From Nostoc linckia FACHB-104 (GTDB taxonomy: Bacteria; Cyanobacteriota; Cyanobacteriia; Cyanobacteriales; Nostocaceae): a stretch of 64,000 nucleotides of DNA. Location of the stretch: positions 62,001-126,000 of the forward strand of contig NZ_JACJQJ010000018.1 of NCBI RefSeq assembly GCF_014696615.1, read 5' to 3'. The notes beneath the pieces are model-generated. The model made no database searches and was not told the origin of the DNA. It saw only the letters and a list, made by a program, of their open reading frames with translations. A program made the translations under genes and the position numbers. Below, in pieces: positions 36,359 through 42,492 of this stretch; position 1 is the stretch's first letter, and every line of letters begins with the position of its first letter.

Positions 36359-36553
36359 TTAATTTACATCAGGGTCAATCTTAAAACCAAGTTGTTCTAA
36401 CCTAGACTGTGTCAGAACCTCCTTTAAAATAATAGTAAATGGATATCGCCGGAATACTTTTGCATCTCCTTGAGACAATAGCTTTCTGGCGTGGCTGATG
36501 TGTATGGGATACAAGGGTTGTTTGTTGGCATCCAGAATATAAACTTTAGTCAT
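36359..36553 (-). pseudogene. IscB/IsrB-type N-terminal fragment (RRXRR/PLMP domain)
   Basis: A 64-residue remnant from ATG 36553 (36577 if read from the upstream in-frame start). It has the N-terminal signature of IscB-like RNA-guided nucleases: KVYILDANKQPLYPIHISHA, then ARKLLSQGDAKVFRRYPFTI and IILKE. The PLMP motif appears as PLYP. The frame stops right after FKIDPDVN, where intact IscB continues from IDPG into the RuvC-I motif. RuvC, bridge-helix and HNH parts are therefore missing and no downstream continuation was found. It may be an expressed stand-alone PLMP domain, but a decayed IS200/IS605-type passenger is more likely. Confidence 0.72.
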
Positions 36554-36577
36554 TATGAGTCCAATTAGCCTAGGCAA

Positions 36578-37207: not shown

Positions 37208-37567
37208 GTGATTCAGTCCCATCATTTTTACGCAATTTTGCCAGCTTCACAGACTGTTTTCAGTTGGGAAACCGCAGATTTTATCAAAGTTATGAAAAAT
37301 GCGGCCCATATCGCTCAACTAACTATTGTTGGTGAACTGGCTTATGCATTCCAACCCCAGGGAGTTTCCGCAGTTATTTTACTAGCAGAATCTCATGTAG
37401 CATTGCACTTTTGGCCAGAAGAGGCAAAAGTTACCATAGATATTCATATATGTGACTACCAAAAAGATAATCAGCAAAAGGCTAAGCTATTAGCGCAGAT
37501 TCTCACCAAGCATATTACTGAGTGTGAAAGCATGGCTGAATGGAATTATTTATATATCACTGGTTAA
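37208..37567 (+). CDS. speD: AdoMet decarboxylase (SpeD)-family pyruvoyl enzyme
   Basis: 119 residues, typical length for prokaryotic class 1B AdoMetDC. The autocleavage site is LLAESHVALHFWPE, with E61/S62 where the serine becomes the pyruvoyl group. H67 and C82 (IDIHICDY) match the processing histidine and catalytic cysteine spacing of Thermotoga SpeD (S63, H68, C83). The usual HTWPE reads HFWPE. The start is a GTG without clear SD. Some SpeD homologues are known to decarboxylate other substrates such as arginine or ornithine, so the substrate is not certain. It converges on the operon of DUF350, FemAB-like, spermidine-synthase-like and DUF4178 genes at 38078-42151. I infer it supplies aminopropyl donor or amine for that pathway. 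Confidence 0.85.
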   Translation: MIQSHHFYAILPASQTVFSWETADFIKVMKNAAHIAQLTIVGELAYAFQPQGVSAVILLAESHVALHFWPEEAKVTIDIHICDYQKDNQQKAKLLAQILTKHITECESMAEWNYLYITG

Positions 37568-37597
37568 TCAACTTTCTCATATAGCAATTCATGTAGG

Positions 37598-37725
37598 GCA
37601 ATACTGCTCGGTTAAGGATTTTCAACTCTTAATTTAGTTTTGGGAAAAGGTGAAAGGGTAAGGGTTAAAGGTTTTTTCTTACCCCTTTTCCCCTTCCCCT
37701 TTTACCCTTAACCGACAGGTATTGC
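37598..37725. mobile_element. MITE-like element, family 1, copy b
   Basis: 128 bp bounded by GCAATACTGCTCGGTTAAGG and, inverted, CCTTAACCGACAGGTATTGC (18 of 20 matching). It is the reverse-orientation copy of 11517-11645. ATGTAGG occurs on both sides (37591-37597 and 37727-37733) and may be a target duplication. Confidence 0.82.
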
Positions 37726-37728
37726 AAT

Positions 37729-38065
37729 GTAGGATGTGTTACGGCTGTGAGAGAATTTGATAATTAGAGACAATTCAATTTAGCCGTAACCCACCGCCGC
37801 GTATATAGTGCGTTAGTGTGAAGATAATTATTTCGTAACCAATTCTATTAAAGGAATTATTTAAATATTAATAACATACTAAGCTGATACGCACCTAAAT
37901 CAAATATTCTGGCGTTAGGACTGTCAAGGGTCAAGAGTCCAGAGTCAAAGGCTAGCTTGGACTTTGGACTCTTGACTTTTGACAACCTGAGTGCGAAATA
38001 TACAATTTAAATGCGTAACAGCTTATGTATGCGGCGGTGCGTTACGCTGACGCTAACGCACCCTA
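37729..38065. repeat. GTAGGATGTGTTA...TAACGCACCCTAC repeat region
   Basis: The first about 75 bp match 42346-42420 in the same orientation (GTGTTACGGCT ... AGCCGTAAC, then CACCGCCGC). The right end is TAACGCACCCTAC. The interior has an AGTCAAAAG-type short repeat. It separates speD from the convergent operon. Confidence 0.6.
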
Positions 38066-38077
38066 CAATTCAAATTC

Positions 38078-38947
38078 TTAAAGACACCAAGCAATTAAAA
38101 AGGAAGCTGCAATATAAGCAAATGCTTCTATTAAACCTGCGCCAACATTGGGAACTTCTTGATTGACAATTTCATCCGAAATTTTTACGCCAGGGACTAA
38201 AATTAAATCGGCTAACCAGCGAATCATTACCAGCGAAATTAAGCAAAATATTAGCAGTAATCCATACTGCGTAAAACTCACTATCCAGTTTTCAAATTCG
38301 GCTGCAAAGGAGACTCTTACAATGTTACCTGTAGCAATTAGTAACCCTGCTAAAGCTACACCAGCCGCCGGGTTATTGCGCTTTTCAATTTCTGCAAACA
38401 CATTATATTTAGTAATTTTGGGATAGACGAAACTGACTAACACAAGTAATCCTAACCCAATTAACCAACAAACTATTCCTACTAACCAACCACCACTTTC
38501 TCCTGCTAAAGCTGCATTTAAAATTAAACCGTTGGCGATGTGGATTGCAGCTTCTACATTCGCCGCACCCATGTTACGGTCTTGGATAATTTCGCGTTCA
38601 CAATTAAAATGACGCAGAATTAATTTATCCCCTACCCATGCACCAGCTAACATTAATAAAATTACTGTGGCACCATAACTAATTAGATTCAGCGCTTTAT
38701 CTTGCCAATTATCGACACTTTGACCAAGAACGCCGCCTAAAGCAATAACTATACCAAAATAGTAACCTACTAATGCCACAGCAACCGCAGGGTTATCATT
38801 AACAAATAATTCTAAATTTAATTCCATGCGGCGGCGAAACAGCTTTTGATAAGCCAACTGTCCTAGCCAAAATAAACCAAACCCTACAAATAATTCTAGT
38901 AAAATCACGCCAAATTGCGTAACTATCGCCATCAATCTTTCGTTCAT
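38078..38947 (-). CDS. DUF350 integral membrane protein (duplicated)
   Basis: 289 residues, about eight membrane segments. It has two DUF350 domains in tandem, each with two related helical units: NDNPAVAVALVGYYFGIVIA, RNMGAANVEAAIHIANGLIL, KRNNPAAGVALAGLLIATG, and EVPNVGAGLIEAFAYIAASF. Function is not established; this family is often encoded beside SpeD, spermidine-synthase-like and DUF4178 genes. Its ATG overlaps the FemAB-like stop codon (38944-38947), so it is translationally coupled and last in the operon. It likely forms the membrane partner of the pathway. Confidence 0.87.
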   Translation of the reverse strand: MNERLMAIVTQFGVILLELFVGFGLFWLGQLAYQKLFRRRMELNLELFVNDNPAVAVALVGYYFGIVIALGGVLGQSVDNWQDKALNLISYGATVILLMLAGAWVGDKLILRHFNCEREIIQDRNMGAANVEAAIHIANGLILNAALAGESGGWLVGIVCWLIGLGLLVLVSFVYPKITKYNVFAEIEKRNNPAAGVALAGLLIATGNIVRVSFAAEFENWIVSFTQYGLLLIFCLISLVMIRWLADLILVPGVKISDEIVNQEVPNVGAGLIEAFAYIAASFLIAWCL

Positions 38948-39987
38948 CTGCTACCACCTGCCAGGTTTTGAAATAAGCTAATGAGGGTATCAGCTAATTG
39001 GTCATAAAAAAAGTAATCATGAGCGCCTATAGTTTTCATAGGCTGTCCACCAAACTGACTTTTAAATTGGGAAAACTTGGCATAGCTATGATTTGGATCT
39101 TGGGTAAATCCATAAAAATCATAAAATTGGCAACCACGTAATTTAGCTCTTTGTATAGCTTCCCAATGTAAGCTGTAATTAGCCATGACTTGTGGATGTG
39201 CTAAACTCCGTCCGCCATATAGATAAGTAGCAACTTGACCGCAATATACTACTAAAATTGCTGCTAATATCTCACCTTGCCAATAGGCTAAACCAATTTC
39301 TGCCATGTCTGATTTAAATAATGTTTGGCAAAGATTGATAAAAAAGCCGTAGGGTTCACCAAAGAACTTTTGACGCTGTACTGTTTCCCAAAATAACTCA
39401 TACAAGACAGGAATCTTTTGGGAATCACTACTAAATCCTGTTGTCACACCATAGCGTTGACTGAGGCGGATATTGTAGCGTCCTTTCGGCTTCATCGCTG
39501 CTAAAATTTGGCTGGGTTCTGGAGTTAAATCTACAAGTAAAGTTTCCGATGGTAGTAAATCCGCAGGTGCGCGCACAAATTTTTTCAAGTACGCTGGTTT
39601 CTCTGTCCATAGTGGTTCAATCCGCAGTGCGATCGCTCCTAATTCTTGCGCTAATTTCTCGGCTTGATGTAACAATAGCTGTAGCGCTTCTTCTGCATAT
39701 TCTGTTGGTAATATCGGCCCGCCAGGCGCAATCAATAAATTAGCTTTATTGCTTTGAGGATATAAATAATAAATACATCCTCCTGTTAATTGATTATTTA
39801 AAAATAAACCGTAGCGAAAGCTTTTATATCCTTCGATTTCTTTAAAATCTGCCCAACTGGAAGTTTGCATAAAGCATCCATGAGGATGGTTTTTAATGAG
39901 TGAATCCCAATCCTGTTGTTCGGCTGTATTTAATTCTCTAATATTTAAAGCTAAATCTTGCTGCACCGATTTATCTGCATAAATCAT
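38944..39987 (-). CDS. FemAB/GNAT-type aminoacyl (peptidyl) transferase
   Basis: 347 residues with the double-GNAT layout of FemABX proteins. The first half contains WDSLIKNHPHGCFMQTSSWADF (the typical HPxGxxxQSxxW opening) and LLIAPGGPIL. The second half has MKPKGRYNIRLSQRYGV (KxRxNIRxAxRxGV) and later ATYLYGGRS and YDFYGFTQDP. FemABX enzymes move amino acids from aminoacyl-tRNA onto peptidoglycan precursors; relatives act on other acceptors. In this operon it could couple an amino acid or polyamine-like group to a peptide, lipid or wall component. No membrane anchor. It follows the spermidine-synthase-like gene by 42 bp. Confidence 0.87.
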   Translation of the reverse strand: MIYADKSVQQDLALNIRELNTAEQQDWDSLIKNHPHGCFMQTSSWADFKEIEGYKSFRYGLFLNNQLTGGCIYYLYPQSNKANLLIAPGGPILPTEYAEEALQLLLHQAEKLAQELGAIALRIEPLWTEKPAYLKKFVRAPADLLPSETLLVDLTPEPSQILAAMKPKGRYNIRLSQRYGVTTGFSSDSQKIPVLYELFWETVQRQKFFGEPYGFFINLCQTLFKSDMAEIGLAYWQGEILAAILVVYCGQVATYLYGGRSLAHPQVMANYSLHWEAIQRAKLRGCQFYDFYGFTQDPNHSYAKFSQFKSQFGGQPMKTIGAHDYFFYDQLADTLISLFQNLAGGSR

Positions 39988-40029
39988 ATTATTTGCCTAT
40001 GATGTAATTACGAATTACGCAAATTATCT

Positions 40030-41514
40030 TCATTCATCCCTTTGTTGCGGGAAGAAGATGTTATATAGCCAAACTCCACCTACTCCAGTGAGGCACATAC
40101 CTATAAATTTATTCATAAATGTATCACCATCACCGCCATAGCTAGTACTACTGCTACTACTGCTACTTCTACTACCACTACTAGAAGAGAAACCTTTAGC
40201 AAATACTGAATCGGGTGCAACTAAATTTGCCATTAATAACGTTACCGATAGCATGGCGATTAACTCCACAGTTTGCGGATGTAGAGTTGCTAATGCTTGA
40301 TTATTACTAAATTTATCAGCTAATTTTTTCAAATCTTGAGCAATTTGTGGTGGTAAATCTTGCGCTCTGGCTAACAAACTCTGCAATAATTGCTTAATAT
40401 CTATTTCTGCGAGTAATTCTTTGAGATGTGCTAGCCATGCTGATGTCATATTTTGGCTATGGTAGCGATGACGCACAGGTAAATACCGATTCATATCTGC
40501 TAACTTATCCTGTGTTTCTGGCAAAGCATAGATATTTTCTATCCAAAATTTGGCTACTGATTCTAAATTTAGTAAATCACCTTCGCCAATTTGAGCATTT
40601 CCTATCTCTTCAATATCTAAAAAATCAATACTAGCGTTAGATTCTAAGTTTAAATTGTCTACCTGCGTTGGAGCATTCAGCAGATAATAAAACAGTTGCG
40701 GACTCTCTAAAGTATGAATCATAACCCCATGCCGAGACTCTGCGATCGCACTCTCAAAAATAAAGGCTAGGAGTAGTTGACTAGGCGTTAAGGAATGTAA
40801 CTCTTCGGGAAAATTGAGGACTTCAATTTCATAGCGCGTAATTACCTGCGGTGATGCTAAAAAGAAGCCCCAATTACCGTAACCATGATGAGAAAATGAA
40901 GGAATAGCTATCTGTAAAGGTTTGACTGTGAAATCTGCGGCTAACAACGTTTGATATAAACACCAAAAACCTGTTGTTCTATTTTGGGGAGAAACGCCGT
41001 TGGTGCAAATTACGCCATTGGGAATGAGTACGCGATTCAGCTTTTGGAACCATTCCCGACTATATATATTTGTGTCGTCTGAAGAATGGGGATAGGTAAA
41101 GTCACAAATGATGACATGATAATAATCATTTGGCATTTCTGAAACAAATGCAAATGCATCTTGGGTATAAACGGTGACTTTTTCTGAGTCTAAGCTTCCC
41201 AAGTTATAAGGTTTAAAGACAGTGCGTGCTAGTTGTAAAACTTCTGGATTGTAATCAACTAAATCAATTTCGCTAACTTGGGGAAAGCGTAAGATATCTC
41301 TCGCCGCTAAACCATCGCCACCACCACAAACCAATACACGCAAGTGTGTTTGCGGAAATCTTTTAATGGCTAAAGCGATTGCAGGAATTACTAAATACTC
41401 ATGATATATTGCCTCATCAGCAGTATCAAACTGCAAATCTCCGTTGATATAGAAAGCAATACCATCATCATGCTGTTCAATAAATAAAGAATTAGGCATT
41501 TCCCACTTATCCAA
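40030..41514 (-). CDS. Membrane-anchored spermidine-synthase-like aminopropyltransferase
   Basis: 494 residues. The N-terminal about 250 form a polyamine aminopropyltransferase fold: RVLVCGGGDGLAARDILRF (nucleotide-binding GGGDG), DLVDYNPEVLQLAR, and a catalytic-loop region IICDFTYPHSSDDTNIYSREWF. The usual DxxDP loop is DFTYP, so the first aspartate is kept and the second is Tyr, suggesting an altered amine acceptor. A helical extension (about 250-420) follows, then a hydrophobic helix (IAMLSVTLLMANLV), a Ser-rich linker and a second membrane helix near the C-terminus (MCLTGVGGVWLYNIFF). It overlaps the DUF4178 gene by 8 bp. Likely transfers an aminopropyl-type group near the membrane. Confidence 0.88.
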   Translation of the reverse strand: MDKWEMPNSLFIEQHDDGIAFYINGDLQFDTADEAIYHEYLVIPAIALAIKRFPQTHLRVLVCGGGDGLAARDILRFPQVSEIDLVDYNPEVLQLARTVFKPYNLGSLDSEKVTVYTQDAFAFVSEMPNDYYHVIICDFTYPHSSDDTNIYSREWFQKLNRVLIPNGVICTNGVSPQNRTTGFWCLYQTLLAADFTVKPLQIAIPSFSHHGYGNWGFFLASPQVITRYEIEVLNFPEELHSLTPSQLLLAFIFESAIAESRHGVMIHTLESPQLFYYLLNAPTQVDNLNLESNASIDFLDIEEIGNAQIGEGDLLNLESVAKFWIENIYALPETQDKLADMNRYLPVRHRYHSQNMTSAWLAHLKELLAEIDIKQLLQSLLARAQDLPPQIAQDLKKLADKFSNNQALATLHPQTVELIAMLSVTLLMANLVAPDSVFAKGFSSSSGSRSSSSSSSTSYGGDGDTFMNKFIGMCLTGVGGVWLYNIFFPQQRDE

Positions 41515-42151
41515 ATATCATCATACAAATTCCTATTAGCAATAGCACAGAAGCAAATAAAACTTGCACACCTTTAATAATCATCTCTCCCACATCAATC
41601 TGATTTGCATCTGCTAATTTTTGGATTGAAGAAAATTCCTCAGGACGGACTACTTTGGTGGAATAAATATCTAATTGATGATAGGGAAAAGCCTCAATAG
41701 CTAAATTCATTTGATGTTCTTCATCCCAATAATCCCAGGTAATGCGAGATTTTATCTCACCGTCTGTCTGATAGTCTCCCTCTGTGCGTGACTCAAAATA
41801 ATAACGCTTATAAAAGAGTTGCAATTCTGGATATGGTTCCGCTTGAGATTGCATATCCTCCCACAACCTGGGTACAATATTTTCTTCGGAATCTGGTAGT
41901 AACAGGCGCGGATTTTGTAATGGGTTAGCCAGATACCAAGTTATAGAATGTGACTTATTGGCTGGATCGAATTCTCTTAATAAGTAATATTCTGAACCCT
42001 TATTAGAAGTTAGCAACCACTCATCCGTTAAATACCCCTGGGGATCTTGATATACGCTGTAGTCTTCTACCTTCCAATCGACACCATGATATTTAACGCG
42101 ATCGCCTGGGCGCAAGTTATGCAATTGTGTTTGAGTAACAATAGCCACCAT
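41507..42151 (-). CDS. DUF4178 protein with C-terminal membrane helix
   Basis: 214 residues. DUF4178 features: LRPGDRVKYHGVDWKVEDYSVY at the N-terminus, then EWLLTSNKGSEYYLLREFD, and a YYFESRTEGDY region. The protein ends in one membrane helix (IIKGVQVLFASVLLLIGICMMIF), so the DUF4178 part should face the cytoplasm. Function unknown; association with SpeD, spermidine-synthase-like and DUF350 genes is a recurring pattern recalled from comparative genomics. First gene of the four-gene operon (42151 to 38078); overlaps the next by 8 bp. Confidence 0.87.
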   Translation of the reverse strand: MVAIVTQTQLHNLRPGDRVKYHGVDWKVEDYSVYQDPQGYLTDEWLLTSNKGSEYYLLREFDPANKSHSITWYLANPLQNPRLLLPDSEENIVPRLWEDMQSQAEPYPELQLFYKRYYFESRTEGDYQTDGEIKSRITWDYWDEEHQMNLAIEAFPYHQLDIYSTKVVRPEEFSSIQKLADANQIDVGEMIIKGVQVLFASVLLLIGICMMIFG

Positions 42152-42345
42152 ACAATCTAAAATATTAAGTAAATTTAAGCGCTTTAGGCAAGTAAATTGG
42201 TAAAAGATGCTTACTCACCTATACGCTTTTATACTATTGCATCTTTGTATGGCTTTCACAACAGATGTTATATGATGTCCGTTTCAGGACTTATCATATC
42301 TGTGAAGGTCGGTAATGGGTAATGGGAAAGAAAAATGCAGATAAA

Positions 42346-42492
42346 GTAGGGTGTGTTACGGCTATGAAAGGATTTGAGACTTAGCGACAATTAAAATTAG
42401 CCGTAACGCACCGCCGCATTGATGGTGCGTTAGGCGCTAGGAAAGTTCTTTCGTGACAAATCATATTGGAAGCTAGCGCCTAACACACCCTA
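42346..42492. mobile_element. MITE-like element with perfect 13-bp terminal inverted repeats
   Basis: It begins GTAGGGTGTGTTA and ends TAACACACCCTAC, exact reverse complements. An inner inverted pair is GTGTTACGGCT / AGCCGTAAC. The left half matches 37729-37805 in direct orientation, so related sequences bracket the polyamine-like operon. Non-coding. Confidence 0.75.

What the first reader, a model, noticed from the sequence alone, without database searches (positions are those of the whole stretch)
37208..42151. Polyamine-like conjugation system: SpeD, membrane aminopropyltransferase, FemAB, DUF350, DUF4178
The sequence shows a pyruvoyl SpeD-family enzyme facing a tightly coupled operon (8-bp, 42-bp and 4-bp junctions). 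The operon encodes DUF4178 with a membrane tail, a membrane-anchored spermidine-synthase-like enzyme, a FemAB-type aminoacyltransferase and an eight-helix DUF350 protein. SpeD plus an aminopropyltransferase normally make free spermidine in the cytosol. Here the transferase is tethered, its DxxDP loop is DFTYP, and a peptide-bond-forming FemAB enzyme is included. I infer synthesis of an unusual amine that is attached to a lipid, peptide or wall component, with DUF350 as membrane partner. The family association is known from comparative genomics, but to my knowledge the product is not.
Basis: partly seen in the sequence, partly recalled or inferred. Interest (0 to 1): 0.85.

Follow-up and report, generated by a model that had tools for sequence, protein, structure and literature searches.

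The report
Cyanobacterial membrane aminopropyl-transfer operon with FemAB
A set of four to five genes, kept together in scattered cyanobacteria, looks like a small assembly line on the inner face of a membrane that puts an amine-bearing group, and probably an amino acid, onto a still unknown cell component instead of making free spermidine.

Summary
In detail: SpeD, DUF350, FemAB, a spermidine-synthase-like enzyme and DUF4178 lie where stated. SpeD is convergent with the operon, and the transferase more likely starts at 41499 (7-bp gap, not 8-bp overlap).

It is a conserved module. Among 145 sampled class genomes, this transferase form ('type A'), its FemAB and a tandem 8-TM DUF350 occur in the same 13. 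In 38 named cyanobacterial loci FemAB adjoins in 37 and DUF4178 in 38.

A related 7TM-fused DUF350/DUF4178 system is published (PMC11237479). Type A lacks the 7TM part, adds FemAB, has DFT[YFCS]P for DxxDP in 50 of 50 rows, and Glu at FemX Arg211 in 49 of 49.

These 13 genomes have no other spermidine-synthase-family gene over cut-off. I favour membrane-surface aminopropyl transfer plus tRNA-dependent aminoacylation of a non-polyamine acceptor, perhaps in the envelope. The acceptor is unknown.

Main weakness: in 6 of the 13 no SpeD was found, so the donor there is unexplained. New variant of a known, functionally unsolved kind.

The parts
37208..37567 (+). SpeD-like pyruvoyl decarboxylase of a short subfamily shared by type A and cyanobacterial type B clusters; GTG start
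   Evidence: PF02675 E 3.5e-20; Ser54, Glu61-Ser62, His67, Cys82 invariant in 8 rows; grouping of 17 of 18 type A and 4 of 5 type B rows at 100/98; just below the NCBIfam TIGR03330 cut-off, 71.3 against 75.65 bits
38078..38947 (-). tandem DUF350, eight TM helices (YjfL-like, 8TM form)
   Evidence: PF03994 in two stretches; model mean pLDDT 84.9 with eight helices of 20 residues or more; no PDB fold match at E <= 0.001
38944..39987 (-). FemAB-type aminoacyl-tRNA-dependent transferase; Phe308-Lys309 kept, Glu211 at the position of FemX Arg211, Phe at that of Tyr215
   Evidence: PF02388 E 2.8e-33; best solved relative 6snr, lipid II:glycine glycyltransferase, E 4.3e-26 with the family profile; residues
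40030..41499 (-). type A spermidine-synthase-like transferase; frame open from TTG 41514, more likely start ATG 41499; catalytic domain to about residue 225, family-specific region, hydrophobic segment, Ser/Gly-rich stretch, hydrophobic end
   Evidence: PF01564 E 4.5e-25; alignment A2; start check; hydropathy
41507..42151 (-). DUF4178 beta-rich domain with C-terminal membrane helix
   Evidence: PF13785 E 2.5e-15; model mean pLDDT 89.1, helix 187-213; no PDB fold match at E <= 0.001

Best explanation
A membrane-surface conjugation line that does not serve the free polyamine pool. Step 1 (inferred from residues): SpeD decarboxylates AdoMet. Step 2 (inferred): the type A transferase, held on the cytosolic face by its C-terminal hydrophobic segments, moves the aminopropyl group to an amine that lacks the distal ammonium of putrescine. 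Step 3 (inferred): FemAB adds an amino acid from an aminoacyl-tRNA to the amine so made or to a neighbouring amine; its acceptor pocket has Glu where peptidoglycan-precursor enzymes have Arg, which would suit a cationic acceptor. Step 4 (guess): DUF350 and DUF4178 form the membrane platform or the path to the other side. Shown here: gene content, linkage, co-inheritance, residue changes, hydrophobic segments. Not shown: any reaction, substrate or product.
For: Transferase, FemAB and a frame with two DUF350 copies are in the same 13 of 145 genomes, spread over 4 families, including G088, where the three lie far apart on one contig. FemAB adjoins in 37 of 38 named loci, DUF4178 in 38, DUF350 in 30, SpeD is within the fetched stretch in 22. 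Asp67 of GGGDG and Asp138, the donor-side residues, are invariant in 13 of 13, while the second Asp of DxxDP is Y/F/C/S in 50 of 50 cyanobacterial type A rows against Asp in 12 of 12 type B or B-like rows. No other PF01564 protein over cut-off in 13 of 13 type A genomes; four have a second match below it. A deoxyhypusine-synthase-family gene is present in 13 of 13, though it is also in 100 of all 145. SpeDs in the low Pfam score band (E 1e-20 to 1e-13) occur in 16 genomes, 15 of them with a type A or B transferase by my sorting, and most A and B SpeDs form one group. FemAB keeps Phe308-Lys309 in 12 of 12 but has Glu at the FemX Arg211 position in 49 of 49 rows; K36, R211 and Y215 bind the acceptor and F304/K305 are essential in FemX (PMC4964394, passages).
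Against: SpeD was not found in 6 of 13 type A genomes, so SpeD is dispensable there or another donor source exists. The order of the FemAB and transferase steps is a guess. 8 of 21 type A SpeDs lack the Pro of the WPE motif (the window's own has it); a Pro is said to separate AdoMet from arginine decarboxylases (PMC10407285, passages), but I could not see which Pro. DUF350 and DUF4178 gave no fold match, so their part is unknown.
Confidence: 0.42

Rival explanations
1. The transferase does not use dcAdoMet. It binds AdoMet itself and moves another group, or senses AdoMet or MTA at the membrane; SpeD is an optional neighbour.
For: Six of 13 type A genomes have no SpeD by Pfam or by a family-specific profile at E <= 10, yet keep transferase, FemAB and tandem DUF350.
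Against: Asp67 and Asp138 are invariant also in the SpeD-less rows; SpeDs of the low score band go with type A or B transferases in 15 of 16 genomes.
Confidence: 0.2
2. The pair simply makes a free polyamine such as spermidine or aminopropylagmatine, and FemAB, DUF4178 and DUF350 act on something else.
For: PF01564 and PF02675 enzymes normally do this; the donor-side residues are kept.
Against: Second Asp of DxxDP absent in 50 of 50; below the NCBIfam speE cut-off, 93.9 against 249.55 bits; co-inheritance with FemAB and tandem DUF350 in 13 of 13.
Confidence: 0.14
3. FemAB is an ordinary peptidoglycan bridge enzyme and the other genes tune envelope stress, as proposed for PspA-linked DUF350/DUF4178 operons.
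For: FemAB is closest among solved proteins to lipid II:glycine glycyltransferase; DUF350/DUF4178/spermidine-synthase operons are linked to PspA elsewhere (PMC11237479, passages).
Against: Glu at the Arg211 position in 49 of 49 rows and Phe at the Tyr215 position in 48 of 49; beyond the five genes no gene family recurs in more than 8 of 38 loci, and that one is a CHASE2-kinase. No PspA profile was run.
Confidence: 0.12
4. A polyamine-decorated cell wall, as in Negativicutes, read by SLH proteins: the line modifies a peptidoglycan precursor with an aminopropyl-derived group.
For: A gene related to an SLH-domain protein lies directly upstream of SpeD in 4 of 38 loci (L060, L062, L064, L066); an LD-carboxypeptidase follows FemAB in 3 of the 12 relatives of the 13-genome set (L038, L040, L042); SLH domains bind polyaminated peptidoglycan in Negativicutes (PMC10628300, passages).
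Against: These neighbours are few, and three of the four SLH cases are much alike; the same passages say that SLH proteins of Cyanobacteria bind pyruvylated polymers.
Confidence: 0.12

Closest known systems
AdoMetDC / 7TM-fused spermidine-synthase-like / DUF350 / DUF4178 clusters (PspA-CesT group 2 of PMC11237479, passages read; Li et al. 2019, doi 10.1042/BCJ20190561, not held: seen only as a citation, its abstract recalled)
   Same: DUF350, DUF4178, a spermidine-synthase-like membrane protein and SpeD; cyanobacterial members mostly share the SpeD subfamily
   Different: Type A has no N-terminal membrane part but a hydrophobic C-terminal end, a tandem DUF350 of about 290 aa instead of short ones, DFT[YFCS]P instead of DFPDP, and FemAB; beyond the five genes nothing recurs in more than 8 of 38 loci, no PspA profile was run
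Canonical spermidine synthase SpeE
   Same: Catalytic domain, GGGDG, first Asp of DxxDP, YHE
   Different: Second Asp of DxxDP replaced, about 270 further C-terminal residues with a membrane segment
FemABX aminoacyl-tRNA transferases
   Same: Pfam FemAB over cut-off, Phe-Lys pair, Lys or Arg at the K36 position
   Different: Glu at the Arg211 position (49 of 49) and Phe at the Tyr215 position (48 of 49; Tyr in L092), which bind the peptidoglycan precursor in FemX
DUF350 operons with a glutathionylspermidine-synthetase-like ATP-grasp ligase (PMC11237479 group 3; the E. coli yjf genes by recall)
   Same: DUF350 beside an enzyme expected to form an amide with an amine
   Different: The expected amide-former here is FemAB (tRNA-dependent), not ATP-grasp

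Membership tests
7TM-fused SpdSyn/DUF350/DUF4178/SpeD system (type B) | Spermidine-synthase domain fused to an N-terminal 7TM domain | tested here: not met
   Type A starts directly with the catalytic domain; type B proteins have over 200 further N-terminal residues
7TM-fused SpdSyn/DUF350/DUF4178/SpeD system (type B) | DUF350 and DUF4178 partners | tested here: met
7TM-fused SpdSyn/DUF350/DUF4178/SpeD system (type B) | PspA-CesT/Tir dyad in the operon | tested here: inconclusive
   No sixth gene family recurs in more than 8 of 38 loci and that one is a CHASE2-kinase, but no PspA or CesT profile was run
Canonical spermidine synthase | D-x-x-D-P with second Asp | tested here: not met
   Y/F/C/S in 50 of 50 rows
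Canonical spermidine synthase | Donor-site residues (Asp of GGGDG, first Asp of DxxDP) | tested here: met
   Invariant in 13 of 13; the roles are recalled
Canonical spermidine synthase | Curated speE score cut-off | tested here: not met
   93.9 against 249.55 bits
Class 1b AdoMet decarboxylase | Ser63, His68, Cys83 of T. maritima | tested here: met
   Ser62, His67, Cys82 invariant in 8 rows (roles)
Class 1b AdoMet decarboxylase | Curated TIGR03330 score cut-off | tested here: not met
   71.3 against 75.65 bits; the Pfam cut-off is met
Class 1b AdoMet decarboxylase | Decarboxylates AdoMet rather than arginine or ornithine | not testable with these tools
   Needs an assay; 8 of 21 type A SpeDs lack the WPE proline
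FemABX | FemAB family and catalytic Phe-Lys | tested here: met
   equivalence of F308-K309 with F304-K305 is by position, aligned directly only to 6snr and 1lrz
FemABX | Arg211 and Tyr215 of the peptidoglycan-precursor site | tested here: not met
   Glu in 49 of 49 rows; Phe in 48 of 49, Tyr in L092
FemABX | Uses aminoacyl-tRNA | not testable with these tools
   Needs an assay

The most novel reading that the evidence does not exclude
Cyanobacteria carry a new kind of envelope modification: a membrane-bound enzyme aminopropylates a lipid-, peptide- or wall-linked amine from decarboxylated AdoMet and a FemAB enzyme then caps it with an amino acid from tRNA, giving a cationic conjugate moved or held by DUF350.
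Probability: 0.28. Interest if true: 0.85.

Novelty: new variant of a known kind. Interest (0 to 1): 0.56.

Why it matters
A SpeD-linked membrane system with DUF350 and DUF4178 is in print without a known product (PMC11237479). The cyanobacterial form adds an enzyme whose chemistry is well understood (FemAB) and two clean active-site changes, so it narrows the product to an amide on an acceptor unlike putrescine, and makes the question testable by mass spectrometry on one deletion set in a culturable cyanobacterium.

Tried and rejected
Chance clustering was rejected by the identical 13-of-145 profile and the 37-of-38 linkage. The sampled genomes are related (the 13 fall in four families), so the combinatorial figure printed is not a probability.

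A non-orthologous SpeD replacement in Pseudanabaena: an NspC-like PLP decarboxylase lies beside the operon in L080, L082, L088 and L090, but close relatives of it are in only 2 of 145 genomes, which are 2 of the 6 SpeD-less type A genomes, so it is not a general substitute. A class 2 AdoMet decarboxylase (PF01536) was found in 0 of 13 type A genomes, but the control search rang nowhere either, so this is inconclusive.

A mobile cassette bounded by repeats: the 91-bp repeat on both sides of the operon matches 41 places in the genome, so it is a dispersed repeat. In plasmids 25 records matched the transferase, none over 80% of the query. The best FemAB hit there, in Methylobacterium, stands beside a peptidase-ABC exporter and hypothetical genes, not polyamine genes.

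Anti-phage system: of the five proteins only the transferase matched a PADLOC model (mad2, E 3.4e-17, residues 50-222, the spermidine-synthase domain). Folds of DUF350 and DUF4178 gave no PDB match at E <= 0.001, and their profiles no solved relative by sequence below E 0.7. Promoter-like and terminator-like sites were no more than in shuffles.
Full report
What is there. The operon runs on the minus strand: DUF4178, spermidine-synthase-like transferase, FemAB, DUF350. The ORF caller reads the transferase from a TTG at 41514, but Met6 is invariant among 13 relatives and is an ATG at 41499, so the junction after DUF4178 is more likely a 7-bp gap. SpeD lies 510 bp away on the plus strand, convergent. 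The own genome (G000, 9.39 Mb in 181 contigs) has one SpeD, one PF01564 protein (this one) and one deoxyhypusine-synthase-family gene. The nearest named relative of the transferase is in Calothrix membranacea FACHB-236, 97% identity.

How common it is. A search of 145 genomes of the class with the transferase gave 79 with some match. Thirteen are full-length close relatives with E <= 1e-120 ('type A'); each of these 13 genomes has that one match only. Fifteen genomes have a weaker match in a frame over 500 aa that I sorted as the 7TM-fused form ('type B'); two other long frames (G119, G111) and the remaining weaker matches were not sorted further. The FemAB profile matched 14 genomes, 13 of them at E <= 1e-170, and these are exactly the 13 type A genomes. 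Frames of 285 aa or more with two DUF350 copies occur in the same 13. The 13 lie in four families; in the window's own family 2 of 8 sampled genomes have it, so it is patchy. In G088 the three genes lie far apart on one contig, so the link is not only proximity. A pattern-based scan of a collection of 84,980 species genomes returned 42 loci: 38 cyanobacterial type A and 4 from other phyla that read like type B. In the 38: DUF4178 38, FemAB 37 (L091, whose transferase frame is broken, has none), DUF350 30, SpeD 22. Some contigs end close by (for example L087, L058, L076), so these are lower bounds. Order: 12 loci have SpeD convergent downstream, 9 have SpeD as first of the five genes, 1 (L083) has a divergent SpeD-like gene at the end, 16 have none in the stretch; in G142, whose contig length is that of L075, SpeD is on another contig.

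Type A against type B. In 8 cyanobacterial type B loci (L044-L051, fetched) the transferase has over 200 further N-terminal residues; DUF4178 of family F6 is beside it in 7 of 8 and a short DUF350 of family F14 in 3 of 8. A type B cluster on a Novosphingobium plasmid shows SPFH, two DUF4178, a hypothetical protein, DUF350, 'polyamine aminopropyltransferase', an FAD oxidoreductase and speD in a row. Trees on chosen rows (22 type A transferases, 18 type A SpeDs): type A transferases form one group (100/99) on a long branch. Of the SpeDs, 17 of 18 type A rows and 4 of 5 cyanobacterial type B rows form one group (100/98), the type B ones among the type A ones; L083 and L051 fall outside. The program warns that long branches meet in both trees, so deep order is unsure.

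Active sites. Over 50 cyanobacterial type A rows (13 plus 37; six contigs occur in both sets by their lengths; L091 left out as broken) the loop reads DFTYP 33, DFTFP 9, DFTCP 6, DFTSP 2; the 8 cyanobacterial type B rows and the 4 rows from other phyla read DFPDP. Asp67 of GGGDG and Asp138 are invariant. From established knowledge of spermidine synthases (recalled), the first Asp acts on the attacking amine and the second holds the far ammonium of putrescine. Loss of the second Asp in every row suggests an acceptor without that far ammonium. SpeD keeps the residues equivalent to Ser63, His68 and Cys83 (roles from PMC10407285, passages). FemAB aligns with lipid II:glycine glycyltransferase 6snr and with FemX. 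Where FemX has Arg211 and Tyr215, which bind the peptidoglycan precursor (PMC4964394, passages), and 6snr also has Arg and Tyr, all 49 type A rows (12 plus 37, again with contigs in both sets) have Glu, and 48 have Phe, L092 having Tyr (47 rows by pattern, L076 and L092 read in the same output). The alignment to FemA (1lrz) shows Arg there too but scores only 0.6 bits. The Lys36 position is Lys or Arg.

Against the reading. Pfam found no SpeD in 6 of the 13 type A genomes, all in one family (f28), and a family-specific profile at E <= 10 also found none. Two of the six match named Pseudanabaena contigs by length (L081, L088). Transferase, FemAB and tandem DUF350 are kept there. Either another source of dcAdoMet exists or the donor differs. 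8 of 21 type A SpeDs of the named loci (L083 left out) lack the Pro of WPE. A deoxyhypusine-synthase-family gene is in 13 of 13 type A genomes but also in 100 of all 145, so it says little by itself; that such genes make homospermidine in related cyanobacteria is recalled and was seen here only in search listings. DUF350 and DUF4178 models have fair confidence (84.9 and 89.1) but no fold match.

Hints at the target, all weak. An SLH-domain protein gene (Pfam shown for L060 only, the rest by similarity) lies directly upstream of SpeD in L060, L064, L066, which are much alike, and in L062, where SpeD is about 2.2 kb from the operon. A DUF1611 gene directly precedes SpeD in 6 of 38 loci, overlapping its first possible start in 4. 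An LD-carboxypeptidase gene follows FemAB in L038, L040 and L042, and in L081, which is the contig of L042. These point to the wall more than to lipids; cyanobacteria are poor in amine lipids (recalled).

Known and new. PMC11237479 (passages read) describes the 7TM-fused spermidine-synthase / DUF350 / DUF4178 operon with PspA and another with an ATP-grasp ligase, and suggests that polyamine level or aminopropylation of other substrates is monitored. It cites Li et al. 2019, whose text is not held; by recall, its abstract says that such fusions do not replace spermidine synthase. The FemAB-containing cyanobacterial form did not appear in the listings; the library lacks most subscription journals. 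I therefore rate it a new variant of a known kind whose function is open.

Noticed in passing
window 37726-37816 and 42343-42433: A 91-bp repeat, 84% alike, flanks the operon; it is a dispersed repeat with 41 matching places in the genome.
   Followed up: yes
L080 6050-7147, L082 921-2018, L088 6145-7242, L090 6156-7250: An NspC-like PLP decarboxylase gene (TIGR01047, 43 bits, far below its cut-off) stands divergently beside the operon in Pseudanabaena loci without SpeD nearby.
   Followed up: partly
L060 11925-13454, L064 11924-13441, L066 11259-12755, L062 14015-15886: SLH-domain protein gene, or a relative of it, directly upstream of and in line with SpeD.
   Followed up: partly
L068 5673-6713, L070 4630-5706, L071 1825-2871, L073 5471-6520, L074 1162-2226, L078 5643-6683: DUF1611 gene directly upstream of SpeD, overlapping its first possible start in 4 of these 6.
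   Followed up: partly
L083 7009-11041: Calothrix brevissima carries an outlying type A form (43% identity) with a longer DUF4178 frame, a different SpeD-like gene at the end and no DUF350 in the stretch.
   Followed up: no
window 36359-36577: Short frame whose sequence resembles the start of an RRXRR/IscB-type protein (recalled likeness, no search run), in a 2.1-kb stretch without frames of 80 aa or more before SpeD.
   Followed up: no
L061 10507-10947, L063 10525-11098, L066 10536-10853, L080 10783-10962: DUF350 frames are short or split in these loci, perhaps decay or sequencing errors.
   Followed up: no
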